DNA from: Trujillonella endophytica
GTDB taxonomy: Bacteria; Actinomycetota; Actinomycetes; Mycobacteriales; Geodermatophilaceae
DNA: 64,000 nt
Direction of reading: 5' to 3'
Assembly: GCF_019799905.1 (NCBI RefSeq)
Contig: NZ_JABGCI010000001.1
Location: forward strand, 434,001 to 498,000
Shown: positions 3,460 to 63,353 of the stretch, in pieces
Layout: every line of letters begins with the position of its first letter
How positions within the stretch are numbered: the stretch's first letter is position 1
Made by a program: the position numbers and the translations under genes
The notes under the pieces: model-generated
The model's input: the letters and a program-made list of their open reading frames with translations, nothing else
What the model was told of the DNA's origin: nothing
Database searches by the model: none

Positions 3460-3927
3460 ATGGCCAGCGTGCAGGAGTCCGTCGACGTCGACGTCCCGAT
3501 CCGCGTCGCCTACGACCAGTGGACGCAGTTCGAGTCGTTCCCCCAGTTCATGGGTGGCGTCGAGCGGATCACCCAGATCGACGACACCCACACCCACTGG
3601 GTCACCAACATCGACGGGGTGAAGCGGGAGTTCGACGCCGAGATCACCGAGCAGCACCCCGAGGAGCGCGTGGCCTGGGCCAGCACCGGCGGCGAGGCCA
3701 AGCACGCCGGTGTGGTGACCTTCCACCGCCTGGACGACGCCAAGACCCGCGTGATGATCCAGATCGACTGGGAGCCCCAGGGTCTGGTGGAGAAGGCCGG
3801 CGCCGCGCTCGGCTTCGACGACCGCCAGGTCAAGGCCGACGCCAAGAAGTTCAAGGAGTTCATCGAGAGCCGCGGCACCGAGAGCGGCGCCTGGCGCGGC
3901 GACGTCCCGCGTCCCGACCAGCGCTGA
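3460..3927 (+). CDS. SRPBCC family (polyketide cyclase/START-like) protein
   Basis: 155 aa. The small alpha/beta SRPBCC fold is recognisable from the N-terminal VQESVDVDVPIRVAYDQWTQ, the central SFPQFMGGVERI and a charged C-terminal helix. Members bind hydrophobic ligands, and this actinobacterial subgroup (coenzyme Q-binding-like) has no defined function. A strong Shine-Dalgarno AGAGGAGG at 3445-3452 fixes the ATG at 3460. It is separated from the next, convergent gene by a repeat element and a long hairpin. Confidence 0.8.
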   Translation: MASVQESVDVDVPIRVAYDQWTQFESFPQFMGGVERITQIDDTHTHWVTNIDGVKREFDAEITEQHPEERVAWASTGGEAKHAGVVTFHRLDDAKTRVMIQIDWEPQGLVEKAGAALGFDDRQVKADAKKFKEFIESRGTESGAWRGDVPRPDQR

Positions 3928-3929
3928 GC

Positions 3930-3985
3930 GAGGACCTCGCTGCCCCCACCCCTCGCAGGCTCGGGGCGGGCCCCTGCAGCGAGGC
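3930..3985 (+). repeat. Family A palindromic intergenic element, copy A1
   Basis: Begins with AGGACC directly after the SRPBCC stop. Outer arms CCTCGCTGC (3935-3943) and GCAGCGAGG (3976-3984) are perfectly complementary. Between them lies the conserved core of the family (CCCCCACCCCTCGC, then GGGCGGGCCCCTGC). See the other copies near 19630, 46752, 48521, 49520, 57985, 58709 and 63239. Confidence 0.75.
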
Positions 3986-3992
3986 CGCACGA

Positions 3993-19621: not shown

Positions 19622-19629
19622 GACGGAAC

Positions 19630-19684
19630 GGCCCCCGTGCCGGGGCCCACCGCGAGCTCGCGAGTGGGGGGCACGGGGGTCCTT
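19630..19684 (-). repeat. Family A palindromic element, copy A2
   Basis: Minus orientation, immediately after the fadE stop. Arms CCCCCGTGC (19632-19640) and GCACGGGGG (19671-19679) flank a core containing GGGGCCCACCGCGAG and CGAGTGGGGGG, and end in the GGTCCTTCC hallmark. Its arms are identical to those of copy A3 at 46752. Confidence 0.75.
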
Positions 19685-19686
19685 CC

Positions 19687-21531
19687 TCAGAAGGCGGCTT
19701 CGTCGACCTCCATGAGCGAGTTGTCCGTGGCCTCCACGATCGCCCGCTCACCGGCCAGGCGCGGGAGCACCTGGGTGGCGAAGAAGCGCGTCGCGGCCAG
19801 CTTGCCGTCGTAGAAGTGGCGGTCCCGCTCGCTGACCTCGCCGCTCAGCGCGGCCAGCGCCACCTCGGACTGGCGGATCAGCAGCCACGCGGTGACCAGG
19901 TCGCCGACGGCCAGCAGCAGCCGGGAGGAGTTCTGACCGATCTTGTAGACGTTGGTCATGTCCTCCTGCGCGGCGGTCAGGTGACCGAACATCGCGGTGA
20001 GCATGGACTGCACCTCGCCGAGGGCGGTCTTGAGGTGCGCGCGCTCCTCCTTGAGCCGGCCGTTGCCCGCCTCCGCGTCGATCGTGGCCTGGATCTGACC
20101 GGCCAGCCAGGTCAGCGCGACGCCGCCGTCCTTGACGATCTTGCGGAAGAAGAAGTCCTGGCCCTGGATCGCCGTCGTCCCCTCGTACAGGGTGTCGATC
20201 TTGGAGTCCCGGATGTACTGCTCGATCGGGTAGTCCTGGAGGAAGCCCGAGCCGCCGAGGGTCTGCAGCGACTCCGCGGTGAGCAGCTGGGTGGCCCGCT
20301 CGGAGCCGAAGCCCTTCACGATCGGCAGCAGCAGGTCGTTGAGGCGCTCGGCGAGCTCCGCCTCCTCGCTGTGGGCCTGCCCGGCGGCCTGTGCCTCCAT
20401 GACCTGATCGCGGAAACCGGCCGCGTACAGGTACAGGGCGCGCATGCCCTCGGTGTAGGACTTCTGCAGCATCAGCGAGCGGCGCACGTCCGGGTGGTGG
20501 GTGATGGTCACCCGCGGGGCGTCCTTGGTGGTGGCCGCCATGTCGGCGCCCTGCACGCGGTTCTTCGCGTAGTCGAGGGCCACCTGGTAGCCGGCCGACA
20601 GGGTCGCGATCGCCTTGGTGCCGACGAACATCCGGGCGTACTCGATGATCTTGAACATCTGGGCGATGCCGTCGTGCACGTCGCCGACCAGCCAGCCCTT
20701 GGCGGGGACCGGTCCGTCGCCGAAGGTCACCTCGCAGGTCGTGGAGACCTTCAGGCCCATCTTCTTCTCGACGTTCGTGACGTAGGCGCCGTTGCGCTCG
20801 CCCAGCTCGCCGGTCTCGACGTCCACGTGGAACTTGGGGACGACGAACAGCGACAGGCCCTTGGTGCCCGGCTTCGCGCCCTCGGGTCGGGCCAGGACCA
20901 GGTGGATGATGTTGTCGGTCAGGTCGTGCTCGGCCGAGGTGATGAAGCGCTTCACGCCCTCGATGTGCCACGAGCCGTCGGGCTGCTGGACGGCCTTGGT
21001 GCGGCCGGCGCCGACGTCGGAGCCGGCGTCGGGCTCGGTGAGCACCATCGTGGCGCCCCACCGCCGGTCGACCATCAACTGTGCGAGCTTCTTCTGCTCG
21101 GGGGTGCCCAGCTCGTGGAGCACGGCGCCGAACGTGGGGCCGGAGCCGTACATGAAGACGGCGGGGTTGGCGCCCAGGATCATCTCGAAGGCCGCCCAGC
21201 GCAGGGCCACCGGAGCGCCGAAGCCGCCGAGCTCCTCGGGCAGGTCGAGGCGGAACCACTCGCCCTCGTTGAGGGCCTGCACCGACTTCTTGAAGGCCTC
21301 GGGGAGGACCACGGAGTGGGTCGCGGGGTCGAAGACCGGCGGGTTGCGGTCGGCCTCGGTGAACGACGCGGCGATCGGGCCCTCGGCGAGCCGGCGGATC
21401 TCGGCGAGCACGCCCCGCGCGGTCTCGGTGTCCATCTGGGCGAACGGGCCGGTGCCGAACCGGTCCTTGGTGTCCAGGAACTCGAAGAGGTTGAACTCGA
21501 GGTCCCGCAGGTTCGCGGTGTAGTGGCTCAT
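19687..21531 (-). CDS. Acyl-CoA dehydrogenase, FadE5-like
   Basis: 614 aa, matching the long FadE5 subgroup of mycobacteria (about 611 aa) including the distinctive [18 protein letters not shown]-terminus. FAD- and substrate-binding motifs include [18 protein letters not shown] and [15 protein letters not shown]. The catalytic-base region reads [20 protein letters not shown]. It catalyses alpha,beta-dehydrogenation of fatty acyl-CoA. It is a single gene with operator-like repeats upstream. Confidence 0.93.
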
Positions 21532-26765: not shown

Positions 26766-27875
26766 ATGACCACCGCCACCTCGCTCCTGGCGCTCTCCCC
26801 GCAGGCCGAGCGCACCTTCGCCGCCCCGGCTCCCTCGCAGCACGCGCTCCCGGCGACGCCCGGGACCGTGCGCTGGGGGGCCATCGACCCGGGTGCCGAG
26901 CCGGTGCTGGAGGTCGCGTCCGGCGCCGGGGTCGCGCTGGAGGCGGTGAGCCACCACGCCGGTGACGCCCCGGAGCTGATGATGGACGCCGGCCTCGAGG
27001 CGATCTGGGCGGCCATCCCGGAGGGGGAGCGCGGGCCGGGCGTGCACGTGCTGACCGGACCGGTCGCCGTCGCCGGGGCGCGTCCGGGCGGCGCGGTCGC
27101 CGTCCGCATCGAGACGATGGCGCCGCGGGTGCCCTACGGCTCGAACTGCGCCGCCAACTGGGGGCTGCTGTACGACACGTACGGCAAGGAGCGGATCACC
27201 GTCTACGAGCTCGACTCCTCCGAGGGCGTCCCGGCCGGGGGGTTCCCGACCGTCGCGCAGCCGGTGTTCGCCTACGACTTCACGTCGCGCGCCCTCTACG
27301 ACGTCCCGGGGTGGAGGACGCCGGCCTCGGCGCGGGTCGAGGAGCCGTTCAGCCGGCCGGTCCGCGTGCCGGTCCGGCCGCACTTCGGCCTGATGGGCGT
27401 GCTGCCCGGCGGCGGCGACGTCCTCTCCAGCATCCCGCCCGGCGTGTTCGGCGGGAACGTCGACAACTGGCGCTTCGGCCCGGGCGCCACGGTCTACTAC
27501 CCGGTGTTCCGCGAGGGCGCCGGCGTCTACTGGGGCGACCCGCACTTCGCCCAGGGCGACGGCGAGGTCTGCGGCACCGCGATCGAGGCCTCGGCGAACG
27601 CGACCGTGCGGCTGGCCGCCGTCGACGACCTGCAGCTGCGCGCGCCGATGCTGGAGACCGACACCCACTGGTACACCCACGGCTTCGGCGCGGACCTCGA
27701 CGCCGCCGCACGGATGGCGGTCGAGGAGATGATCACGCTGCTGCAGTGGCGGGTCGGGCTCACCGCCGACGACGCCTACTCGCTGTGCTCCGTGGCGATG
27801 GACATGGGCGTCACCCAGGTCGTCGACGGCACGCTGGGCGCCCACTGCGGAATCGCCCGCTCGATCTTCCTCTGA
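26766..27875 (+). CDS. Acetamidase/formamidase family protein
   Basis: 369 aa. The family is recognised from TGPVAVAGARPGGAVAVRI, FGLMGVLPGG, PPGVFGGNVDNW, YPVFREGAGVYWGDPHFAQG and GDGEVCGTAIEASA, which carry the metal-binding Asp/His residues. It hydrolyses short-chain amides to acid and ammonia. No Shine-Dalgarno precedes the ATG at 26766. An in-frame ATG at 26704 would add 21 residues and is an alternative. It is followed five bases later by a family B repeat. Confidence 0.88.
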   Translation: MTTATSLLALSPQAERTFAAPAPSQHALPATPGTVRWGAIDPGAEPVLEVASGAGVALEAVSHHAGDAPELMMDAGLEAIWAAIPEGERGPGVHVLTGPVAVAGARPGGAVAVRIETMAPRVPYGSNCAANWGLLYDTYGKERITVYELDSSEGVPAGGFPTVAQPVFAYDFTSRALYDVPGWRTPASARVEEPFSRPVRVPVRPHFGLMGVLPGGGDVLSSIPPGVFGGNVDNWRFGPGATVYYPVFREGAGVYWGDPHFAQGDGEVCGTAIEASANATVRLAAVDDLQLRAPMLETDTHWYTHGFGADLDAAARMAVEEMITLLQWRVGLTADDAYSLCSVAMDMGVTQVVDGTLGAHCGIARSIFL

Positions 27876-27880
27876 GCCCA

Positions 27881-27947
27881 CTCGACGAGATCTGCACAGT
27901 CGTCACCATCAGCGGCTGATGCCGCCCAGTGTGCAGATCTCGTCGAG
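27881..27947. repeat. Family B palindromic element, copy B1
   Basis: Perfect 18-base outer arms CTCGACGAGATCTGCACA (27881-27898) and TGTGCAGATCTCGTCGAG (27930-27947), with an inner dyad CATCAG-CGG-CTGATG. It begins five bases after the amidase stop and ends 50 bases before the DUF559 gene. Confidence 0.85.
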
Positions 27948-27997: not shown

Positions 27998-28876
27998 GTG
28001 CCCAGCCGCCCACCCCGCCTCCGCGTCCACGGCCCCACCACGCGTTCTGCGGTCCTCGCCGCAGGCCTGGGTGAGCGGGCGCTCCGCCATGCCGGGGTGC
28101 GTCGTCTCTCGCGCGACACGTACCTGCCGCGGGCCTCGGCGGACGACGCCGCCTCCCGCGTCGCCGCCGTCCTCCTGACCGCGCCACCGAGCGCAGTCGC
28201 CAGCCACTCGACCGCGGCCGAGTTGTGGGGCTTGGAGATCCCGCTCCAGCGGCCGGATGCCCGGGTCCACCTGACCGTCGACCCCGGGAGTGCCATCCGG
28301 GCCCGCGCGGATCGCTGTGTCCACCGGACGGCCCGCGTGCCCGGGGACGTCACCTCGCGCCGGGGGCAGCCCCTGACCACGCCACAGCGGACCTGGCGCG
28401 ACCTCGCTGGTGTCCTCCAGCCACCGGCGCTCCTGGCGGTCACCGACCAGCTCCTGGTGCGACTGTGTTCGCAGCAGGACCTCAGCGATGCCCTCGACCG
28501 ACGTCCCGGCGGCCGGGGCGCCAAGCGGGCGCGGGACGTGTTGCCGCTCGCCGATGCGCGCGCCGGGTCCCCCATGGAGTCGGTGCTGCGGTGGCTGCTC
28601 CACGAAGCGGGGCTGCCGGCACCCGTCCTGCAGTACCGGATCGTCGATGCAGCCGGGCGGGTCGTCGCCGTGGTGGACATGGCCTGGCCCGAGCGCCGCC
28701 TCGTCGTCGAGTTCGACGGGGACGTCCATCGCGAGCGGGACGTCTTCGTCCGCGACCTCCGCCGTCAGAACGGGCTGGTCCTGACCGACTGGAGCGTGCT
28801 GCGCTACACCTCCGCGGACGTGCTCGGCCGACCGGACGACGTGGTCGGCGGGATCGGGACGGCGCTCGGCCGCTGA
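27998..28876 (+). CDS. DUF559/Vsr-like endonuclease-domain protein with AbiEi-like N-terminus
   Basis: 292 aa from a GTG. The N-terminal half resembles the winged-helix AbiEi-type region found in many actinobacterial proteins (LSRDTYLPR, ASHSTAAELWGLEIP, TTPQRTWRDLA). The C-terminal 110 residues form a PD-(D/E)xK-like DUF559 domain, with SPMESVLRWLLHEAGLPAP, VVDMAWPERRLVVEFDGDVH and LVLTDWSVLRYTSADVL. Similar genes are scattered in actinobacterial genomes with unknown role. It has no partner gene and is bracketed by family B repeats on both sides. Confidence 0.75.
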   Translation: MPSRPPRLRVHGPTTRSAVLAAGLGERALRHAGVRRLSRDTYLPRASADDAASRVAAVLLTAPPSAVASHSTAAELWGLEIPLQRPDARVHLTVDPGSAIRARADRCVHRTARVPGDVTSRRGQPLTTPQRTWRDLAGVLQPPALLAVTDQLLVRLCSQQDLSDALDRRPGGRGAKRARDVLPLADARAGSPMESVLRWLLHEAGLPAPVLQYRIVDAAGRVVAVVDMAWPERRLVVEFDGDVHRERDVFVRDLRRQNGLVLTDWSVLRYTSADVLGRPDDVVGGIGTALGR

Positions 28877-28881
28877 GGCCC

Positions 28882-28944
28882 CGACGAGATCTGCACACTC
28901 GTCGGCATCACGGCTCGATGGTGACGACTGTGCAGATCTCGTCG
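28882..28944. repeat. Family B palindromic element, copy B2
   Basis: Arms CGACGAGATCTGCACA (28882-28897) and TGTGCAGATCTCGTCG (28929-28944), interior GGCATCA / TGATGG-type sequence as in B3. It lies between the stops of the DUF559 gene and the convergent P450 gene, so it may also serve as a bidirectional terminator. Confidence 0.85.
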
Positions 28945-44248: not shown

Positions 44249-45336
44249 GTGCGGCGGCCACGGGTGCGGGGCCGGCGAGCGCCCCGCCGGTCGGGCCCGG
44301 CCCCGTCTGGGACGTCGTCAACGGCCTGGCCGCCTTCGGCGCCCTCTCCGCCGCGCTGGAGCTGGGCCTGTTCGATGCGCTCGTGGCGGCTGGGGAGCCC
44401 GGGCTGCCGCCCGCGGAGCTCGCCGCCGCGGTGTCGGCGGCCGACGCCGACGCGGTGGCGCTGCTCGCCGACGTCCTGGTCTCCCTGGGCCTGCTCACCG
44501 GCGACGGGCGCGCCGTGAGGCTCCTCCCGGTGGCCGAGCGCTTCCTGGTCTCCGGCTCGCCCGCCTCGATGGCGGCGCTCGGCCGGCTCTCGCCCGGCCC
44601 GTGGTCGGGCTGGCAGCAGCTGGCCGCGACGATCCGCACGGGCGCCGTCCCGGCGGGCACCCGCGACGAGCTGACGGCGATGTACCCGGCGCTGGTCTCG
44701 GCCACGGCGCCGACCCAGCGGGCGGTCGCGACCGGCGTGGCCGCGGCGCTGGCCGAGCGGGGCCTGTGGCCGGCCGCCCCGCGGGTGGTCGACCTCGGCT
44801 GCGGCTCGGGCGCCTGGCTGGCCGCGCTGCTGGCCGACCGGCCCGCCGCCACCGCGGTCGGGGTGGACCTGCCCGGCGTCCTGCCGGTCGCCCGGCAGAC
44901 GGTCGCCGGCCTCGGCGTGCGGGTGACCCTGGTCGAGGGCGACTACCTCGAGGTGGACGTGCCGCGCGGCTCGGCCGACGTCGTCGTCCTCGCGCACGTG
45001 CTCCGCGCCGAGCCGGCCGAGCGGGCCCGCCGGCTGCTGCTGCGTGCGCTGGAGCTGCTCGCGCCCGGAGGTGTCGTCGTGGTGGCCGACTACCCGCGGC
45101 CCGACCCGGTCGCGGCGCCGGACCCGGGCCGCGACGCCGTCCTCGCCGGGGCCCGCCACGAGCTGCTGCTCTCGCTCACCATGGCCGCCGCCACCGACGG
45201 GCACGGCCTGACCCTCGCCGACCTCCGGTCCTGGGCCGCCGACGGCGGGGCCCGGCTCACCGACGTCCTGCAGCCGGTGCCGCGGCAGACCGTCCTCCTG
45301 ATCCGCCCCGACTCCTCCACCGCGACCGAGAGGTGA
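44245..45336 (+). CDS. SAM-dependent methyltransferase (O-methyltransferase family)
   Basis: 363 aa. An N-terminal dimerisation/winged-helix part (about 1-150) is followed by the Rossmann core with VVDLGCGSGAWLAALLAD (motif I), GVDLPGVLPVAR and ELLAPGGVVVVADYP. The layout matches plant-type and polyketide O-methyltransferases. In a catabolic operon it might transfer a methyl group from a demethylation step or protect an intermediate; that is inference. Confidence 0.82.
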   Translation: MSAAATGAGPASAPPVGPGPVWDVVNGLAAFGALSAALELGLFDALVAAGEPGLPPAELAAAVSAADADAVALLADVLVSLGLLTGDGRAVRLLPVAERFLVSGSPASMAALGRLSPGPWSGWQQLAATIRTGAVPAGTRDELTAMYPALVSATAPTQRAVATGVAAALAERGLWPAAPRVVDLGCGSGAWLAALLADRPAATAVGVDLPGVLPVARQTVAGLGVRVTLVEGDYLEVDVPRGSADVVVLAHVLRAEPAERARRLLLRALELLAPGGVVVVADYPRPDPVAAPDPGRDAVLAGARHELLLSLTMAAATDGHGLTLADLRSWAADGGARLTDVLQPVPRQTVLLIRPDSSTATER

Positions 45337-45338
45337 CC

Positions 45339-46748
45339 ATGACCGAGGACAGCACCCCGACCGGCGAGCCCTGCGACACGCTCGTGCTCGGCGCCCACGT
45401 CGTGACCATGGACGACGAGCGGCGGGTGTTCCGCGACGGCGGCATCGCCGTCCGCGACGGCCGGATCGTCGACGTCGGGCAGTCCGCCGACGTCGCCGCC
45501 CGCTGGACCGCCGGGGACGTCGTCCGCGGCGAGCGCTTCGTCGCGACGCCCGGGTTGATCAACACGCACGTGCACATCACCGGGGAGCCGCTGACCCGGG
45601 GCTTCGTGCCCGACGACACCCCGTTCCTCGAGAACGTCTTCGAGTGGCTGACGCCCATCCACACCCACTACACCGAGGAGGACGAGCACATCTCCGCGCA
45701 GCTGGCCGCGCTGGAGATGCTCAGGTCCGGGACGACGGCCTTCCTGGAGGCCGGCACGGTCCGCTTCATCGACCCCGTCGTCGACGGGCTGTCGGAGATC
45801 GGGATCCGGGCGCGGGTCGGCCCCTGGGCGTGGGACCTGGTCGACGACTACGAGGCGCTGCGGATGACCACCGCCGAGGCGATCGGCGCCATGACCTACG
45901 CGATGGACACCTACGGCTCGGCCGCCGACGGCCGCGTCCAGGCCTGGCCGATCGTCATCGGGCACACCACCTGCAGCGACGAGCTGTGGCAGACCGCCAA
46001 GCGGATGTCGGACGAGCGCGGCACCGGGATGAGCGCGCACATGTCCCCGGCCGCGATGGACCCCGAGGGGTTCCTGGCCACCTTCGGGCAGCGGCCGATG
46101 GTGCACCTCGACGAGATCGGCGTCCTGGACCGCAACGTGCTGCTCACGCACGCCGTCCACGTCGACGACGCCGAGATCGCCGTCCTCGCCCGGACCGGGA
46201 CGTCGATCGCGCACTGCCCGACGACGGCGCTGAAGGTGTCCTACGGCATCACGCAGATCGGCAAGTTCCCGGAGATGGTCGCCGCCGGCGTCAACGTGGC
46301 CATCGGCACCGACGGCAACAACGCGTCGAACTACCACGACCTGATGCGGGCCACCTACCTCGTCGCCGGGCTGTTCAAGGACGCCCGCCGGGACGCGACG
46401 ATGTTCCCGGCCGAGGACGCGTTCGCCATGGCCACCCGCAACGGCGCCCGCGCGTTGCAGGCCGAGGACGAGCTCGGCTCGATCGAGGTCGGGAAGCAGG
46501 CCGACCTGGTCCTGTACGACACCAACCGCCCCGAGTGGCGGCCGCTGCACAACGTCGCCAACCAGCTGGTCTGGTCCGCCGACGGCCGCGGCGTGCACAC
46601 CGTCTTCGTCGGCGGACGCCGCGTGGTCGAGGACTACCGCTGCACCACGATCGACGAGGACGACCTGCTGCGCCGCGCCCAGGCCGCGGGCGAGGGCATC
46701 GTCGCCCGCTCCGGGCTCCCCGACCGGGCCAAGTGGCCCTCGTACTGA
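45339..46748 (+). CDS. Amidohydrolase, AtzA/TrzN/deaminase-like (copy 2)
   Basis: 469 aa. Metal sites are TPGLINTHVHITGEPLTRG (His-x-His), MSAHMSP, LTHAVHVDD and AIGTDGNNASNYHD, with the C-terminal GSIEVGKQADLVLYD. Same architecture as the gene at 35099, and both follow an MDR oxidoreductase. Possible deaminase or hydrolase of an N-heteroaromatic or nucleoside-like compound. ATG two bases after the methyltransferase stop. Confidence 0.88.
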   Translation: MTEDSTPTGEPCDTLVLGAHVVTMDDERRVFRDGGIAVRDGRIVDVGQSADVAARWTAGDVVRGERFVATPGLINTHVHITGEPLTRGFVPDDTPFLENVFEWLTPIHTHYTEEDEHISAQLAALEMLRSGTTAFLEAGTVRFIDPVVDGLSEIGIRARVGPWAWDLVDDYEALRMTTAEAIGAMTYAMDTYGSAADGRVQAWPIVIGHTTCSDELWQTAKRMSDERGTGMSAHMSPAAMDPEGFLATFGQRPMVHLDEIGVLDRNVLLTHAVHVDDAEIAVLARTGTSIAHCPTTALKVSYGITQIGKFPEMVAAGVNVAIGTDGNNASNYHDLMRATYLVAGLFKDARRDATMFPAEDAFAMATRNGARALQAEDELGSIEVGKQADLVLYDTNRPEWRPLHNVANQLVWSADGRGVHTVFVGGRRVVEDYRCTTIDEDDLLRRAQAAGEGIVARSGLPDRAKWPSY

Positions 46749-46751
46749 CAC

Positions 46752-46803
46752 AAGGACCCCCGTGCCCCCCGCCAGCTCGCGGCGGGTCCCTGCACGGGGG
46801 CCG
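46752..46803 (+). repeat. Family A palindromic element, copy A3
   Basis: Starts AAGGACC three bases after the amidohydrolase stop. Arms CCCCCGTGC (46757-46765) and GCACGGGGG (46792-46800). It sits inside an operon, 26 bases before the next start codon, so it may lower or tune downstream expression. Confidence 0.75.
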
Positions 46804-46828
46804 ACACACCCAACAGGAAGGAACCGTC

Positions 46829-47597: not shown

Positions 47598-47630
47598 GAT
47601 CCGACCCCACGAGCAGAGGAGGTGGCCGGC

Positions 47631-48518
47631 GTGCGTACCCGTGCGATCGGTTCCCGGCAGGTCGGCGCGGTCGGCCTGGGTGCCATGCACCTGTCGAGCG
47701 CTCCGGACCGGCCCGAGCCCGCCCGCGCGGCGTCCGTCGTGCACGCCGCGCTGGACGCCGGGGTGAGCGTGGTCGACTCGGCGGACGTGTACTGCCACGA
47801 CGACACCGAGATCGGCCACAACGAGCGGCTGGTGGCCGCCGCGCTGCGGGCCTGGTCCGGGGATGCCGACGACGTCGTGGTCGCCACCAAGGGCGGCCTC
47901 GTGCGCCCCGGCGGCGGGTGGGACTTCCGCGGCACGCCGGAGCACCTGCACGCCGCCGCCCGGGCGAGCGCACGGGCCCTCGGCGTGGAGTCGATCGGCC
48001 TCTACCAGCTGCACTGGCCGGACCCGTCGGTGCCGTACGCGGAGTCCGTGGGCGCCCTCGGGGAGCTGGTCGACGCCGGGGTGGTGCGCGCGGTGGGCGT
48101 GAGCAACGTGGACGTCGCGAAGCTGGACACGGCTGCGGAGGTGCTCGGCGACCGGCTGGTCAGCGTGCAGAACCCGTTCTCCGTCGAGGACCGCTGGGGC
48201 GAGCCGATGCTGCGCCGGGCCGAGGAGCTGGGGCTGGCGTTCCTGCCCTACACCCCGCTGGCGGGCGTGGCCGGGGACGGGGCGCGGGCGCGGGCCACGC
48301 GGTCGGTGGCCGGGGAGCTCGGGGTGTCACCCCAGCGGGTGGCACTGGCCTGGCTGCTGGCGCGCTCGCCGGCCGTGGTGCCCATCCCGGGCTCCACCCG
48401 GCCCGAGTCGATCCGGGACAGCGCCGCCGCGGCGGACCTGCAGCTCTCGGCCGAGCAGCGGGCCCGGATCGACGAGGCGCCGGCGGACCCGTCCCGGCCG
48501 ACGACGTTCGCGCACTGA
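47631..48518 (+). CDS. Aldo/keto reductase
   Basis: 295 aa. TIM barrel with the catalytic tetrad region VVDSADVYCHDD, VVVATKGGL, LYQLHWPDPSVP and the C-terminal cofactor segment VVPIPGSTRPESI. NADPH-dependent carbonyl reduction. AGAGGAGG at 47615-47622 is placed for the GTG at 47631, and an earlier GTG at 47622 overlaps it. Monocistronic between promoter S3 and repeat A4. Confidence 0.88.
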   Translation: MRTRAIGSRQVGAVGLGAMHLSSAPDRPEPARAASVVHAALDAGVSVVDSADVYCHDDTEIGHNERLVAAALRAWSGDADDVVVATKGGLVRPGGGWDFRGTPEHLHAAARASARALGVESIGLYQLHWPDPSVPYAESVGALGELVDAGVVRAVGVSNVDVAKLDTAAEVLGDRLVSVQNPFSVEDRWGEPMLRRAEELGLAFLPYTPLAGVAGDGARARATRSVAGELGVSPQRVALAWLLARSPAVVPIPGSTRPESIRDSAAAADLQLSAEQRARIDEAPADPSRPTTFAH

Positions 48519-48520
48519 AG

Positions 48521-48578
48521 AAGGACCCGGCTGCCCCCCACCCCTCGCTCCGCTCGCGGCGGGCCCCTGCAGCCGGGC
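48521..48578 (+). repeat. Family A palindromic element, copy A4
   Basis: Starts AAGGACC two bases after the aldo/keto reductase stop. Arms CCCGGCTGC (48526-48534) and GCAGCCGGG (48569-48577), with the core CCCCCCACCCCTCGC and GGCGGGCCCCTGC. Confidence 0.75.
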
Positions 48579-48617
48579 CGCCCGCTGGTGGCGGCGAAGC
48601 CCTCATCTCACGACACG

Positions 48618-48673: not shown

Positions 48674-49597
48674 ATGGACCTGCTCGCGACGCCCCAGGGC
48701 CTGGCGCGCCGCGAGGGCGACGAGGTCGTCGTCCTCGACCTGCCCCACCGGGACGTCGGAGCGCTCGTCCGCGACACCGGCTCGCTCGCCGCGGCGGCCG
48801 GTGCGGGCGTCGTCCGGCGGCTCCCCACGCTCGAGGCGCTGGCCTCCGCGCTCCCGCCGCTGCCGGCGCCCGGCACGGTCTGGGGTGTCGGGCTGAACTA
48901 CCGCTCCAAGGCGCGCGTCACCGGCCGCGAGGTCCCCGCCGAGCCGATCCTGTACGTCTCGGCCGCCTCGTCGGTGACCGGGCCGAACGGGCTGCTGCCG
49001 CACCCGTCCGGCGTGACCGAGGAGCTGGACGCCGAGGCCGAGATCGCCGTCGTCCTGGGGCGCCGGCTGTACCGCGCCTCCGAGCGGGAGGCGTGGGCCG
49101 CCGTCGCCGGGATCACGGCGGGCAACGACCTCACCGCGCGCGACGTGATGAAGGCGACCGGCACCCCGGCGCTGGCCAAGAGCTTCCCCGGGTGCACGCC
49201 GCTGGGTGCGTCCGTGCTCGACGCCCGCACGCTGCCCGACGCCGGCTCGATCGGCGTCCGCGGATGGGTCAACGGCGTCGTCCACCAGGACGACAGCAGC
49301 GCCGACATGATCTGGTCGATCCCCGAGCTGCTCGCCCGGATCTCCTGGTACGCCGCGCTCGAGCCCGGCGACGTGTTCCTCAGCGGCACGCCCGCGGGCA
49401 CCGGCCAGGACCGTGGCCGCTACCTGGTCCCCGGTGACGTCGTCACCGTCGAGGTCGACGGCGTCGCGCCGCTGACCACCACCGTGACCGCACCGATCGA
49501 GACCCCCTGTCCCCCCTCCGGCCCCGTTGCAGGGGCCCGCCGCGAGCCTGCGAGCGGTGGGGGGCAACGGGGACCTTCCCGCGTCCCGGCGCACTGA
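48674..49597 (+). CDS. Fumarylacetoacetate hydrolase family protein with repeat-derived C-terminus
   Basis: 307 aa. FAH fold: GVGLNYRSKA, a metal-ligand stretch EELDAEAEIAVVLGRR, GNDLTARDVM, KSFPGCTPLGASVL and FLSGTPAGTGQ. The family hydrolyses C-C bonds in ring-cleavage products or decarboxylates/hydrates them. The native chain probably ends near TTTVTAPIE; the last about 31 residues are encoded by and around repeat A5 and are Pro/Gly/Arg-rich. First gene of the 48674-52062 operon. Confidence 0.85.
   Translation: MDLLATPQGLARREGDEVVVLDLPHRDVGALVRDTGSLAAAAGAGVVRRLPTLEALASALPPLPAPGTVWGVGLNYRSKARVTGREVPAEPILYVSAASSVTGPNGLLPHPSGVTEELDAEAEIAVVLGRRLYRASEREAWAAVAGITAGNDLTARDVMKATGTPALAKSFPGCTPLGASVLDARTLPDAGSIGVRGWVNGVVHQDDSSADMIWSIPELLARISWYAALEPGDVFLSGTPAGTGQDRGRYLVPGDVVTVEVDGVAPLTTTVTAPIETPCPPSGPVAGARREPASGGGQRGPSRVPAH
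49520..49577 (-). repeat. Family A palindromic element, copy A5, inside the FAH gene 3' end
   Basis: Minus orientation. Arms CCCCGTTGC (49522-49530) and GCAACGGGG (49563-49571), ending in ACCTTCC. It lies within the reading frame and supplies part of the C-terminal tail and moves the stop codon downstream. Confidence 0.75.
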
Positions 49598-56338: not shown

Positions 56339-57606
56339 GCTCGACCGGTACCGCCGAGGGCGGCGGGGAGCTCCTCCCCGCCGCCCTCGGCGTGCTGGCG
56401 GCCACCCCCGCCCCGCACGGCGCGGAGCGGCCGGCCGCGGAGGCCCTCGCCGCCTGGGGACGCGGCGCGCTGCCCGGGCCGGACTGGTCCGTCACGCCCG
56501 TGGGTGACGCCGGGGCGAACGTCGTCGTCACCCTGCCCGGGGACGGCGCCCCGGCGTTGCTGCTCGCCTCCCACCTGGACACCTCCCTCTCGGGGCTGCC
56601 GGCCGAGGACGCCCCGGTCACCGGCCGGGCCGACGCCCCGGACCCGCTGCGGATCGACGGCGACGAGGTCAGCGGACCCGGCCTGGGCGTCGCCCGCGGG
56701 CCGGCCGCCGCCGCGCTGGCCGGGCTCGCGCTGGCCGCCGAGCGCCTGGCGGGCCGTCCGCACCGCACCGTGCAGCTGCTGCTGGCCGGCTCCGGCACGC
56801 ACCGCAGCGCGCTCCCGGCTGCCCTGGCGGCGGGCTCCGTGCGCCCCTCGTCCAGTGCCGGCGCCCTCGCCCACCTGACCACGCACCCCCGCCCGGACGC
56901 CGTCCTGGTGGCCAAGGGAGGCCCGGCGGCGGTGCTGCGCGCCGAGCCGGGCGCCGGCTACCTGCGGCTGACCGTCACCGGCCGCATGGGCGCCGCGCTC
57001 GCGCCGGCGTCGGCCGACCCGGTGGGCGGCGTCCTCGTGCACGCGGGGACCGTGCTGGAGGCGGTCGGCCGGTGGCGGGTGGCCTTCCGTGACGCCCGCC
57101 GCGGCCGGGCCGACGGGCTCGGCGGCGAGCTCGGCCTCGGGGCGCTCTCCGGCGGGCGGCCGGACAAGCCCGACCTGCTGCCCGCGGCGCTCGACCTGCG
57201 CCTGTACTGCGTGACCGTGCCCGGCGACGACCTGGCCGCCCTCGCCGACGACCTGGCCGCCGCGGTGCGCGCGGACCTGGCGCGGACGCCGCTGGCCGGC
57301 TGCGCCGTCGAGGTCGCGGCCGAGCCGCTGCACCCGGCGGGCGTCACGGCGGCGGACGCGCCCGTCGTGCGGGCCACGGAGGCGGCGTGGGCGCGGCACC
57401 GGCCGGAGCCGCCGGTCGCCGTCCGCGACTGGACCGGCTCGACCGACGGCGTCGTCTTCCGCGCTGCGGGCATCGACACCGCCCGCTGCGGCCCGGCGGC
57501 CTCCCCGGACCCGGCCGACCCGCGCCGGGACCGCCTGTCGCTGGCCGCCCTGCGGTCGTTCGCCGAGCTCTACGCCGACGTCGCCGTCACCCTCGCCACG
57601 CCCTGA
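56335..57606 (+). CDS. M20-like peptidase/deacylase homologue with missing metal ligands, probable CTG start
   Basis: 423 aa. The fold is recognisable from ALGVLAATPAPHGAERPAAEAL, LLLASHLDTS (His-x-Asp) and a lid-domain-like middle. However, the bridging-Asp motif reads GPGLGVARG, no Glu-Glu pair is visible, and the final metal His region (CGPAASPDPADPRRDRL) lacks His. It may be inactive or use a different mechanism. The N-terminal helix lies upstream of the first GTG (56392), so a CTG at 56335, in a CTGA overlap with the VOC stop, is the likely start. Confidence 0.6.
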   Translation: MSSTGTAEGGGELLPAALGVLAATPAPHGAERPAAEALAAWGRGALPGPDWSVTPVGDAGANVVVTLPGDGAPALLLASHLDTSLSGLPAEDAPVTGRADAPDPLRIDGDEVSGPGLGVARGPAAAALAGLALAAERLAGRPHRTVQLLLAGSGTHRSALPAALAAGSVRPSSSAGALAHLTTHPRPDAVLVAKGGPAAVLRAEPGAGYLRLTVTGRMGAALAPASADPVGGVLVHAGTVLEAVGRWRVAFRDARRGRADGLGGELGLGALSGGRPDKPDLLPAALDLRLYCVTVPGDDLAALADDLAAAVRADLARTPLAGCAVEVAAEPLHPAGVTAADAPVVRATEAAWARHRPEPPVAVRDWTGSTDGVVFRAAGIDTARCGPAASPDPADPRRDRLSLAALRSFAELYADVAVTLATP

Positions 57607-57611
57607 CCCCT

Positions 57612-57674
57612 CGACGAGATCTGCACACTCGTCGGCATCAGCGGTTGATGGTGACGAGTGTGCAGATCTCGTCG
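57612..57674. repeat. Family B palindromic element, copy B3
   Basis: Two 29-base arms (57612-57640 and 57646-57674) differ at only two positions when one is reverse-complemented; the outer part is CGACGAGATCTGCACACTCG. It lies between the convergent M20-like and ribokinase stops. Confidence 0.85.
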
Positions 57675-57678
57675 GGGA

Positions 57679-58662
57679 CTAGGTGAGGGGCTCGGCAGCG
57701 GGGGTCTTCTCGAGCGCCGCCTGGACGTCGCGATTGGCCGGCAGCGCGCCGCGGGCGCCGGCGCCGGTCGTCGACAGCGCGGCCGCCGTCGCCGCGTAGC
57801 GGACCGCCTCCGGCAGCGCCTGGCCCCGGGAGAGCGCCTGGCACAGCGCCCCGCAGAAGCAGTCGCCCGCTCCCGTCGTGTCCACGGGCGTCACCGGCGG
57901 CGGGGGCTGCAGCAGCGCCGGACCGCCGTCGGCCGGGACGACGACGGCGCCGCGCGCGCCCACGGTGACGACCACCGCCGTGCGACCTCCCTGCAGGGGC
58001 CCGCCGCGAGCTTGCGAGTGGTGGGGGGCAGGGAGGTCCTTCATCAGGTCGCGGGCCAGCGCGGCCACCTCGGCCGGGGAGCGCTCGGTGTCCGGGACGC
58101 CGGCCAGCGCGGCCAGCTCGTGCTCGTTGGGCACCAGGACGTCGACCCGCGCCAGCAGTTCCGCGGGCAGCGGCGCCGGTGGGGCGGGGTTCAGCACCAC
58201 CGTGCCGCCGGCCAGCCCGGCCGCGGCGGTGACGGTCTCCATCGGCACCTCGAGCTGCAGGAGCAGGACGTCGGCGCGCTGCACGGCCGGGACGTCGACG
58301 TCCCCGGGCACCAGCGCCGCGTTGGCACCGGGCACGACCACGATCAGGTTCTCCCCGCTGCCGCTCTCCACCGGGATGGTGGCGGTACCGGTGGGCACCC
58401 CGGCCGTGCGGTGCACCCGGCTGACGTTCACCCGGCACTCGGCGAGCGCGGCCTGCATGCGCGCGCCGGCGGGGTCGTCCCCGACCCGGCCGACCATGTG
58501 CACGCCCGGGCCCAGCCGTCCCGCGGCGGCGGCCTGGTTGGCGCCCTTGCCGCCGGCGGCGGTGGCCGACGCGCTGCCGATGACGGTCTCGCCGCGGCCG
58601 GGGAGGCGGTCGACGGTGATGAGCACGTCCTCGTTGAGGCTGCCGACGACGGTGACGGACAC
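57679..58662 (-). CDS. rbsK: Ribokinase with an in-frame repeat-encoded insertion
   Basis: 327 aa. Sugar-binding GRGETVIGSASATAAGGKGANQ, an NEHELAALAGVPDTE stretch, and the catalytic DTTGAGDCFCGALCQAL are intact. The chain is longer than usual because repeat A6 inserts 19 residues (KDLPAPHHSQARGGPLQGG, about 206-224) just before the conserved VVVTVGARGAVV strand. Phosphorylates ribose or another sugar, which fits the BMP importer if the substrate is a nucleoside or glycoside. GTG start with AGGAGG upstream. Confidence 0.88.
   Translation of the reverse strand: MSVTVVGSLNEDVLITVDRLPGRGETVIGSASATAAGGKGANQAAAAGRLGPGVHMVGRVGDDPAGARMQAALAECRVNVSRVHRTAGVPTGTATIPVESGSGENLIVVVPGANAALVPGDVDVPAVQRADVLLLQLEVPMETVTAAAGLAGGTVVLNPAPPAPLPAELLARVDVLVPNEHELAALAGVPDTERSPAEVAALARDLMKDLPAPHHSQARGGPLQGGRTAVVVTVGARGAVVVPADGGPALLQPPPPVTPVDTTGAGDCFCGALCQALSRGQALPEAVRYAATAAALSTTGAGARGALPANRDVQAALEKTPAAEPLT
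57985..58042 (-). repeat. Family A palindromic element, copy A6, inside the ribokinase gene
   Basis: Minus orientation. Arms ACCTCCCTGC (57985-57994) and GCAGGGAGGT (58028-58037), then CCTTC. The insertion keeps the ribokinase frame open and adds about 19 codons. Confidence 0.8.
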
Positions 58663-58708
58663 GGAGATGGCCTCCTGGGCTCAGAGGGGCGGGGGACCGC
58701 GGTCAGCG

Positions 58709-58763
58709 GCCATCCTTCAGGGGCCCGCGCCGAGCGTGCGAGGCGTGGGGGGAAGGGTGGTCC
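58709..58763 (-). repeat. Family A palindromic element, copy A7
   Basis: Between the TauD-like stop and the ribokinase start. Arms CCATCCTTC (58710-58718) and GAAGGGTGG (58752-58760) pair with one G-T; the core is GGGGCCCGCGCCGAGC and GAGGCGTGGGGGG. Confidence 0.7.
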
Positions 58764-58767
58764 TCTC

Positions 58768-59847
58768 TCACAGACCCCAGTTCATGTCCGGCACGGCGGC
58801 GCTCGCGATGTGCGAGATGCGCTCGACGTCCTCCTTCTCGCTGCGGTCGCTGTCGCGGCCCTGGACGACGGAGTTCTTGCCGAAGCCCTCGACCAGCGGC
58901 CGGCCGACGTCGCGGCGCAGCCACAGCCGCAGCAGGTGGCGACGGCGCTCGACCTCCGGGAAGTCCTCGTACGAGGTCCGCGAGTGCAGGGCGGCGTAGT
59001 TGAGCAGCCACTGGACGTCGCCGGGCTGGAAGTCCATGTCGATGGGCAGCCCCTCCTCCTGCGACACCTCGTCGTAGAGGGCGAGCAGCTCCTTCTGCGC
59101 CTCGGTCAGCCGCGGCACGTCGGGGAAGCGCTGCGCGGACTCGATCATCGAGCTGCCGGCGTAGCTGGAGAAGACGCCGTCCACCCAGCTGCAGATCGGC
59201 GAGGTGTACCAGTCGGCCGGCGCGTCCTTGTCCTGCGCCTTCCAGTCCCAGTGCCAGGTGTCGAACAGCAGCGGCGCGAGGTCGGGACGGCGCCGCAGGA
59301 TCTCGTTGTAGATCGTCGCGCCGCTGACCAGGCTGCTCGACCCGCCGGCCTTCGCGCCGCGCAGGCACATGAGGGCGACGACGTCGGAGCTGTCGGAGTG
59401 GAACGGCAGCCGGTCGCGCACCCGCGAGGGCAGTGCGCCGTCGGCCATCGTCAGGTTCGAGGTGGCGATGACGTGGTCGAGCAGGTCGCCGACCTCGTTC
59501 TGCTTCATCGGCACGCCCAGGTGCAGGCCGATGACGAAGAAGATCGCGCTGGCCAGGACGTCGCCGTACTCCTCGGTGCGCAGCCCGCGGACCAGGATGA
59601 AGCCCCGGCCGCCGTCCAGTTGCCCGGCGACCTCGCGCAGGTGGGCCGCGTTGGCCGGGATCGGGTACTGCTCGGCGGTCACCGCGCGCAGGTCGGGGTC
59701 GTCGGCGACGAACCGGCGGCCCACCTCCTCCAGCTCGGTGCGCTCGGCCTCGGACAGCTCGTAGATCCACTCGGTGGTCTGCGACAGGACGTCGCCGCGC
59801 CAGGCGGCGGGGCCCTCCACGGGCGAGAGCGAGACGGTGCTGGTCAT
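58768..59847 (-). CDS. TauD/TfdA-family 2-oxoglutarate-dependent dioxygenase
   Basis: 359 aa. The iron triad is His150, Asp152 (LPFHSDSSD) and His288 (YAALHSRTSYED), and the 2-oxoglutarate-binding Arg lies in RRRHLLRLWLRR. Such enzymes hydroxylate and thereby cleave C-O, C-N or C-S bonds or side chains. GGAGGAACCC lies directly before the ATG. It is upstream of the ribokinase on the same strand, separated by A7, so the two are probably one operon. Confidence 0.88.
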   Translation of the reverse strand: MTSTVSLSPVEGPAAWRGDVLSQTTEWIYELSEAERTELEEVGRRFVADDPDLRAVTAEQYPIPANAAHLREVAGQLDGGRGFILVRGLRTEEYGDVLASAIFFVIGLHLGVPMKQNEVGDLLDHVIATSNLTMADGALPSRVRDRLPFHSDSSDVVALMCLRGAKAGGSSSLVSGATIYNEILRRRPDLAPLLFDTWHWDWKAQDKDAPADWYTSPICSWVDGVFSSYAGSSMIESAQRFPDVPRLTEAQKELLALYDEVSQEEGLPIDMDFQPGDVQWLLNYAALHSRTSYEDFPEVERRRHLLRLWLRRDVGRPLVEGFGKNSVVQGRDSDRSEKEDVERISHIASAAVPDMNWGL

Positions 59848-62170: not shown

Positions 62171-62214
62171 GCGCCTCGCTGAGCAGCACGGACACCCGGG
62201 ACCCGCGGTGGTGA
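62167..62214 (+). CDS. Possible 15-aa coupling ORF
   Basis: ATG at 62167 overlaps the methyltransferase stop (ATGA), and its TGA (62212-62214) overlaps a GTG of the PKS gene (62211). It encodes MSASLSSTDTRDPRW. A bridge of this kind lets ribosomes pass from one gene to the next; the peptide itself need not be functional. Confidence 0.35.
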   Translation: MSASLSSTDTRDPRW

Positions 62215-63239
62215 GCGCGGTCGTCACCGGGTCCGGTTCGGCTCTGCCCGCGTCGCTGGACCAGGACGCCGCCTGGGACGGCTTCTTCGCCCGGCACTAC
62301 GAGGGCGTGCGGGCGGCCCGCCGGATCTTCACCGGCGCCGGGGTGCGCACCCGGCACGCGGTCGCCAACCCGGTGGACGAGGACCTGAGCAACTGGAGCA
62401 CCGGTGCGCGCATGGCGCGCTACGTGCAGGAGGCGCTGCCCCTGGGCAAGCAGGCGGTCGCCGGCGCGCTGGACAGCGCGGGCCTGGCGCCGGGGGACGT
62501 CGGCATGTTCGCCGTCGTCACCTGCACCGGCTACGCGACCCCGGGGTTGGACATCCGGCTCGCCAGCGACCTCGGCATGCCCCCCGGGCTGCAGCGGCTC
62601 CTGGTCGGGCACATGGGCTGCTACGCGGCGATCCCCGGGCTCGCGGCGGTCGGCGACTACGTGACCGCGCGGGCCAAGCCGGCCGTGCTGCTGTGCTGCG
62701 AGCTCACCAGCCTGCACGTCCAGCCTGCGCAGCGGGACCTCGAGCAGGTGGTCGCCCACGCGCTGTTCTCCGACGCCGCGGCCGCCGTGGTCGTCCAGCC
62801 CGGCGCCGGTCGCGGGCGGCGGCTGGCCGGGGTCGTGGCCCGCACGGACAACTCCACCGCCGACCACATGACGTGGGACGTCACCGACCTGGGCTTCCGG
62901 ATGGGCCTGTCCCCGCGGGTGCCCGACGTCCTCTCCCGGCACGTGGGCGGCGTGGTCGACGAGCTGCTCGCCGACGCCGGCCTGCGGGTCGAGGACGTCG
63001 CGGGCTGGGCGGTGCACCCCGGCGGTCCGCGCATCCTCGACGTGGTCCGCGACGAGCTGGGTCTCGCCGAGGAACAGATCGCGGCGTCACGCAGGGTGCT
63101 GGCCGAGCACGGCAACTGCTCCTCGGCGACCGTGCTGCTGGTCCTCGACGAGCTCGCCGACGTCGACGGCCCCGTGGTGGTCATGGCGTTCGGTCCGGGT
63201 CTGACGCTGTACGCCGCGCTGCTGATGCCGGCCTGCTGA
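62208..63239 (+). CDS. Type III polyketide synthase (chalcone/stilbene synthase family)
   Basis: 343 aa. The catalytic triad is complete: Cys138 in GHMGCYAAIPG, His in WAVHPGGPRIL and Asn in EHGNCSSATVL. Bacterial members make alkylresorcinols, alkylpyrones or tetrahydroxynaphthalene from malonyl-CoA and an acyl starter. Start GTG at 62208 or 62211. Operon with the methyltransferase suggests a methylated resorcinol or quinone lipid. Confidence 0.9.
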   Translation: MVSAVVTGSGSALPASLDQDAAWDGFFARHYEGVRAARRIFTGAGVRTRHAVANPVDEDLSNWSTGARMARYVQEALPLGKQAVAGALDSAGLAPGDVGMFAVVTCTGYATPGLDIRLASDLGMPPGLQRLLVGHMGCYAAIPGLAAVGDYVTARAKPAVLLCCELTSLHVQPAQRDLEQVVAHALFSDAAAAVVVQPGAGRGRRLAGVVARTDNSTADHMTWDVTDLGFRMGLSPRVPDVLSRHVGGVVDELLADAGLRVEDVAGWAVHPGGPRILDVVRDELGLAEEQIAASRRVLAEHGNCSSATVLLVLDELADVDGPVVVMAFGPGLTLYAALLMPAC

Positions 63240-63281
63240 AGGACCCCCTCGCCCCCCGCCCCTCGCCAGCGGGCGGCGGGA
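63239..63281 (+). repeat. Family A element, truncated copy A8
   Basis: AAGGACC overlaps the PKS stop codon (TGAAGGACC). The core CCCCCCGCCCCTCGC and GGCGGGAC is present, but the expected right outer arm (GCGAGGGGG) is missing. Confidence 0.6.
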
Positions 63282-63353
63282 CAATCCGAGCGGGCGGGCC
63301 ACGCCGGGATGTGGGGCGGAGCTGCAGGTACTACTCTCTGTGACAGGCATAAG

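What the first reader, a model, noticed from the sequence alone, without database searches (positions are those of the whole stretch)
57985..58042. Palindromic repeat inserted in frame inside ribokinase
Copy A6 of the intergenic family lies within rbsK, preserves the frame and encodes KDLPAPHHSQARGGPLQGG just before a conserved strand. Catalytic motifs are intact on both sides. This resembles Rickettsia palindromic elements that insert into genes, which I have not seen described for this actinobacterial group.
Basis: partly seen in the sequence, partly recalled or inferred. Interest (0 to 1): 0.82.

Follow-up and report, generated by a model that had tools for sequence, protein, structure and literature searches.

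The report
Stop-codon palindrome inserted into ribokinase
A short hairpin-forming DNA repeat that normally sits just behind stop codons in a family of soil and rock bacteria has jumped into the middle of a sugar-kinase gene here, adding about 17 harmless-looking amino acids; the repeat family seems undescribed, although repeats doing this are known in other bacteria.

Summary
Confirmed. The repeat at 57980-58043(-) lies inside rbsK (57679-58662, -, 327 aa). It is a net in-frame insertion of 48-51 nt that all 86 other Geodermatophilaceae RbsK orthologues found lack. It is one of about 170 copies in this Blastococcus-group genome of a ~62-nt hairpin family found only in Geodermatophilaceae. Rarer coding copies make an N-terminal ThiG extension, C-terminal tails and, in a sister species, an in-frame fusion of two acyl-CoA dehydrogenase genes. 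Five of five are read in the same phase. The family turns over fast (17 of 25 copies absent at syntenic sites in the closest relative), so it behaves as a mobile element. It is not a RAYT-driven REP (0/37 family genomes carry a Y1 transposase) nor a plain intrinsic terminator (no T-run). Arms covary strongly but without G-U preference, suggesting DNA-level upkeep. The mobiliser and cellular role are unknown. In-frame insertion of palindromes (REP/RPE/MITE) is known; this family and its stop-codon docking appear new.

The parts
57679..58662 (-). rbsK, ribokinase-family sugar kinase, 327 aa, carrying the inserted element
   Evidence: ORF; 64-92% identical to RbsK of family members; best PDB match ribokinase 6znx, E 5e-58
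57980..58043 (-). the inserted palindromic element, full covariance-model match (89.0 bits, second best in the genome)
57991..58038 (-). 16 codons (DLPAPHHSQARGGPLQ, residues 209-224) absent from the closest orthologue G003; 17 codons absent against G001, G002, G004 (exact ends ambiguous by a few nt)
58028..58038 (-). 5' outer arm of the hairpin, GACCTCCCTGC
   Evidence: strand folding
57984..57994 (-). 3' outer arm of the hairpin, GCAGGGAGGTC
   Evidence: strand folding
3928..3990 (+). family copy starting immediately after the stop codon of the gene at 3460-3927(+)
19626..19686 (-). family copy immediately after the stop codon of the gene at 19687-21531(-)
46750..46806 (+). family copy 1 nt after the stop codon of the gene at 45333-46748(+)
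48519..48583 (+). family copy immediately after the stop codon of the gene at 47622-48518(+)
49516..49579 (-). family copy opposite to, and at the 3' end of, the gene call 48674-49597(+)
58704..58767 (-). family copy immediately after the stop codon of the gene at 58768-59847(-), directly upstream of rbsK
63237..63300 (+). diverged family copy overlapping the stop codon of the gene at 62208-63239(+)

Best explanation
The feature is a copy of a Geodermatophilaceae-specific, non-autonomous palindromic mobile element (~62 nt: NGAAGGACC - variable arm - TGCCCCCCACCGCTCGCNNGCTCGCGGCGGGCCCCTGCA - complementary arm - GGCCG) that usually lands directly behind stop codons. I infer that the unit moves as a DNA hairpin, by an enzyme still unknown, and joins next to a G at the -6 position (TG|A in TGA, TAG|). 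Most surviving copies are behind stop codons because that context is harmless. In rbsK it landed at a CTG codon away from any in-frame stop, replaced about 11 nt and added 16-17 codons in frame in a surface loop between a helix and a strand, where the kinase tolerates it. Shown: family, copy number, positions, absence in relatives, fast turnover, frame and loop position. Inferred: transposition, junction chemistry, neutrality for the kinase.
For: All 4 congeners and 13 other family members aligned lack the insert. Among 87 family genomes with an orthologue no other match has the extra length, and several alignments break exactly at residues 205-207. 170 copies were surveyed in G000: 128 at same-strand gene ends with stop-to-GGAC distance peaking at 4-5 nt. 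The G at -6 stays put whether the stop is TGA (distance 4) or TAG (distance 5), and copies not at a same-strand stop also favour G there, mostly as AG. Against the closest relative, 17 of 25 syntenic copies are absent and 3 inverted. Arms: 95.5% paired, 242 two-sided changes against 53 in shuffles. AlphaFold model, mean pLDDT 94.6: the insert is an unstructured loop (pLDDT ~67-78) between helix 196-208 and strand 229-233. rbsK dN/dS of G000 pairs 0.13-0.18, no higher than other pairs. This copy is near-consensus, hence probably young.
Against: No mobilising enzyme was found, and the one obvious candidate class (Y1/RAYT) is absent. No clear target-site duplication was seen at rbsK, and the exact junctions are ambiguous because the nearest genome differs by 11% in rbsK. 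About 11 nt of host sequence had to be lost at insertion, which a clean transposition would not require. The -6 G rule has exceptions: about a quarter of copies, including the acyl-CoA dehydrogenase fusion copy.
Confidence: 0.7

Rival explanations
1. The family is primarily a functional 3'-end element (mRNA 3' stabiliser or transcription-termination hairpin) recruited behind stop codons by selection; the rbsK copy is a by-product of duplication of such an element.
For: Sense-strand orientation bias and tight placement 0-6 nt behind stops; strong hairpin; REPs in other phyla are also next to ORF 3' ends and thought to act as RNA.
Against: No T-run after the hairpin. At C90:525585 the copy precedes a GC hairpin conserved in relatives including one without the element. 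Non-Watson-Crick pairs do not favour G-U over A-C (31 against 53 of 2841), so there is no sign of RNA-level constraint. Most orthologous gene ends lack the element.
Confidence: 0.2
2. It is a REP/BIME-type element mobilised by a RAYT (IS200/IS605-like Y1) transposase.
For: Size class, palindrome, location behind genes, occasional intragenic in-frame copies and supply of stop codons match REPs (PMC3733652).
Against: 0 of 37 family genomes have a Y1_Tnp domain while E. coli and other controls do; no GTAG or CGTC tag in the logo.
Confidence: 0.03
3. The rbsK copy is an ancestral loop that resembles the repeat by convergence, or an assembly or sequencing artefact.
For: The contig is from a draft assembly of 301 contigs.
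Against: 64-nt full-length match ranking second of 149 hits, arms complementary, clean gap in every orthologue, frame kept, within a 1.39-Mb contig.
Confidence: 0.02

Closest known systems
Repetitive extragenic palindromes (REPs; GTAG and CGTC superfamilies, Di Nocera et al. 2013, PMC3733652)
   Same: Short dispersed palindromes with variable stems, close to ORF 3' ends, sometimes supplying the stop codon, sometimes inside ORFs in frame
   Different: ~62 nt rather than 20-40; no GTAG or CGTC tag; no RAYT gene in the family; restricted to Geodermatophilaceae in these searches
Rickettsia palindromic elements (RPEs; PMC10969869)
   Same: In-frame insertion into protein genes with a recurrent peptide, palindromic DNA
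   Different: RPEs are described as ~150 bp with nearly half sitting in ORFs; here 1 of 170 copies is internal and most are behind stops; no sequence relation shown
Mycobacterial interspersed repetitive units (MIRUs; PMC12548453)
   Same: Actinobacterial short repeats at gene junctions; the acyl-CoA dehydrogenase fusion copy sits at a TGATG stop/start junction
   Different: MIRUs are described as inserting at start codons and carrying a coupled ORF; these are hairpins behind stop codons
Intrinsic transcription terminators
   Same: GC-rich hairpin just behind the stop codon, sense strand
   Different: No T-run; conserved core and loop sequence; sits in front of a separate conserved hairpin at a well-aligned locus; rapid gain and loss

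Membership tests
REP (RAYT-mobilised) | Y1/RAYT transposase encoded in the genome | tested here: not met
   PF01797: 0 of 37 Geodermatophilaceae, positive in 5 control genomes
REP (RAYT-mobilised) | GTAG or CGTC unpaired tag at one end | tested here: not met
   Positions -4 to -1 are N-G-A/G-A; the 3' side is GGCC-G followed by unconserved bases
REP (RAYT-mobilised) | High-copy short palindrome near gene 3' ends | tested here: met
   170 copies, 128 at same-strand gene ends
Rickettsia palindromic element | Frequent in-frame location inside ORFs | tested here: not met
   1 of 170 copies internal in G000, plus a few terminal extensions
Rickettsia palindromic element | Sequence similarity to RPE families | not tested
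   No RPE sequence was compared
Intrinsic terminator | GC hairpin followed by a run of T | tested here: not met
   T is 0.07-0.26 at each of the nine positions after GGCCG
MIRU | Insertion at overlapping stop/start codons with a coupled internal ORF | tested here: inconclusive
   One copy at a TGATG junction; most are behind stops without overlap; an internal coupled ORF was not examined
MITE | Non-autonomous element with terminal inverted repeats and target-site duplication | tested here: inconclusive
   Inverted repeats present; no clear target-site duplication at rbsK; parent transposase unknown
Known Rfam RNA | Reaches a family's gathering score | tested here: not met
   No hit at gathering; only chance-level matches at E 0.3

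The most novel reading that the evidence does not exclude
A new kind of RAYT-independent DNA-hairpin mobile element that targets stop-codon triplets as DNA motifs (a G at a fixed distance in TGA and TAG), keeps its locus-specific arms complementary by a DNA-level process (template switching or arm rewriting), and now and then builds new protein linkers and gene fusions through one fixed reading phase.
Probability: 0.25. Interest if true: 0.75.

Novelty: new variant of a known kind. Interest (0 to 1): 0.55.

Why it matters
It adds an actinobacterial family to the short list of palindromic elements that can become protein sequence, and gives natural cases (internal loop, N-terminus, C-terminus, gene fusion) where much the same ~19-residue peptide was grafted onto unrelated enzymes. 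The stop-codon docking, the lack of a RAYT and the covariation without G-U preference make a clear, testable puzzle about how such palindromes move and keep their arms matched.

Tried and rejected
RAYT/REP origin: rejected, no Y1 transposase in the family. Known RNA family: no Rfam match. Intrinsic terminator as full explanation: no T-run, and a conserved separate hairpin follows at one well-aligned locus. A conserved 3' tail GTTCCAGCACGTC is present in only 11 of 169 copies (up to 3 mismatches), so it is not a general part of the element. Junction and target-duplication analysis from empty sites was limited because non-coding flanks of congeners are too diverged to align. Literature searches for Geodermatophilaceae repeats found nothing relevant; most subscription journals are not covered. 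One alignment call failed because of a stop codon in one row and was repeated without it.

Full report
Observation. The palindrome at 57985-58042 is real and lies in frame inside a 327-aa ribokinase ORF on the minus strand. The hairpin has 11-bp outer arms. The conserved GGKGANQ and TTGAGD motifs are intact on either side. The best PDB match is a ribokinase.

Insertion test. RbsK of the four other genomes of the genus (86-89% identical at DNA level) and of 13 further family members lacks the stretch: a clean 48-nt gap against the closest (G003), 51 nt against the other three. In a family-wide search, 87 of 115 genomes gave a strong orthologue (G000 included) and no other match has the extra length; several alignments stop exactly at residues 205-207 and one skips about 19 residues. 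The host loop varies by one codon between congeners, so the exact ends are ambiguous by a few bases. Aligned to the others, about 11 nt of host sequence seem to have been replaced by the ~62-nt element.

What the repeat is. Aligning 29 copies showed one hairpin read in the direction NGAAGGACC - arm - TGCCCCCCACCGCTCGCNNGCTCGCGGCGGGCCCCTGCA - arm' - GGCCG. A covariance model finds at least 149 copies in this genome, with 150 the number scored. Scanning the contig stretches fetched gives 170 distinct copies. Within the family, rich genomes reach the scoring cap of about 86 while some have 0-4; 24 genomes of other families of the order have none, and an even sample of 296 other genomes of the class has none under strict filters. 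Contig lengths identify G004 as Blastococcus sp. URHD0036 and G019 as Modestobacter sp. VKM Ac-2982, so the family is Geodermatophilaceae and the window is from the Blastococcus group.

Where it sits. With a home-made codon-usage gene caller, 128 of 170 copies begin at the 3' end of a gene on the same strand; the stop-codon-to-GGAC distance is 4 nt in 64 cases, 5 in 23 and 0-2 in 22. At 0-2 nt the element supplies part of the stop codon. Coding DNA is 89% of the contig, yet only one copy, the rbsK one, lies fully inside a gene. TGA stops mostly lie at distance 4 and TAG stops at distance 5, which keeps a G at position -6. Copies that are not behind a same-strand stop also favour G at -6, usually as AG, and 15 of 42 have a stop triplet ending 3-7 nt before GGAC against 5% for random windows. 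Some of those 15 may be missed gene ends. This points to a DNA-level site preference rather than a purely translational one, but is not proof.

Turnover. Over ~495 kb of synteny with G003, 17 of 25 G000 copies are absent, 5 present in the same orientation and 3 inverted. Of 14 G003 copies, 6 are absent from G000. At C90:525585 the copy lies between the stop codon and a GC hairpin that is conserved in relatives, including one (G004) without the element.

Arms. On 141 copies, 95.5% of pair cells are standard pairs and 242 cells changed on both sides, against 53 in column shuffles; sliding the partners destroys the signal. Non-Watson-Crick cells do not favour G-U (31 G-U against 53 A-C of 2841). 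RNA-level selection on the sense strand would be expected to favour G-U, so I infer that complementarity is set or restored at the DNA level. The size of this effect depends partly on one pair column.

Other coding copies. C90:62065-62128 extends the N-terminus of a ThiG-like protein (MSEDPRPPHHSQARGGPLHGG) where G003 starts MDDVLELAGE (gene name from general knowledge of the family). L218:6575-6638 gives a C-terminal tail absent in G003, and L287:3189-3252 a tail on a protein that looks like an Ogt/MGMT alkyltransferase. In G001 a copy fuses two acyl-CoA dehydrogenase-like genes into one ORF; the other four genomes have two genes overlapping at TGATG. All five, rbsK included, read the element in one phase (K/E-D-x-x-x-P-H-x-S-x-A-R-x-G-P-L). 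By chance five of five in one phase is about 1%, a small sample chosen after the fact.

Effect on the kinase. The AlphaFold model (mean pLDDT 94.6) puts the insert in an unstructured loop between helix 196-208 and strand 229-233 at pLDDT about 67-78. dN/dS for pairs with G000 (0.13-0.18) is not raised against other pairs (0.14-0.22). Function is therefore probably kept, though the insertion may be too young to leave a trace. Whether the peptide stays in the protein is untested.

Comparison. In-frame palindromes in genes, and REPs that touch or supply stop codons, are described in many other bacteria (PMC3733652; PMC10969869), and MIRUs dock at gene junctions in mycobacteria (PMC12548453). The present family differs in size, tag, taxonomic range, absence of RAYTs and strong stop-codon docking. 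I file it as a new variant of a known kind, not as a REP or RPE member.

Noticed in passing
L352:1865-4138 (G001:C28): Two acyl-CoA dehydrogenase-like genes, separate and overlapping at TGATG in four congeners, are fused in frame into a 757-aa ORF by a copy of the element acting as linker.
   Followed up: yes
L203:2061-2891 (G000:C90:62061-62891): ThiG-like protein whose first ~20 residues are encoded by a copy of the element; the nearest relative lacks them.
   Followed up: partly
G022:C24:140446-140641: Three copies of the element in tandem with a 66-nt period and identical scores, suggesting local amplification.
   Followed up: no
G000:C90:173514 and other loci: 11 of 169 copies, and several in other genera, continue into a conserved tail GTTCCAGCACGTC(ACC); possibly a longer, older form of the element.
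   Followed up: partly
window 58704-58767: The copy next to rbsK is replaced at the same site in G003 by an element in opposite orientation with different arms.
   Followed up: partly
L213:1454-1515, L223:7585-7646, L238:17079-17140: A sub-family with core TCCTCA...TCGCAAGCTC...TGAGCCTCTGG (arms CCCCGTCC/GGACGGGG) coexists with the main form.
   Followed up: no
window 57603-57674, 28873-28944, 27874-27945: A second, unrelated 72-nt inverted-repeat family (CGACGAGATCTGCACACTCGTC...GTGCAGATCTCGTCG), three copies, one between rbsK's 3' end and the convergent neighbouring gene.
   Followed up: no
G021 and G006 genomes: Element-poor members (1 and 4 hits) of element-rich genera g11 and g3; useful for finding the mobiliser.
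   Followed up: no
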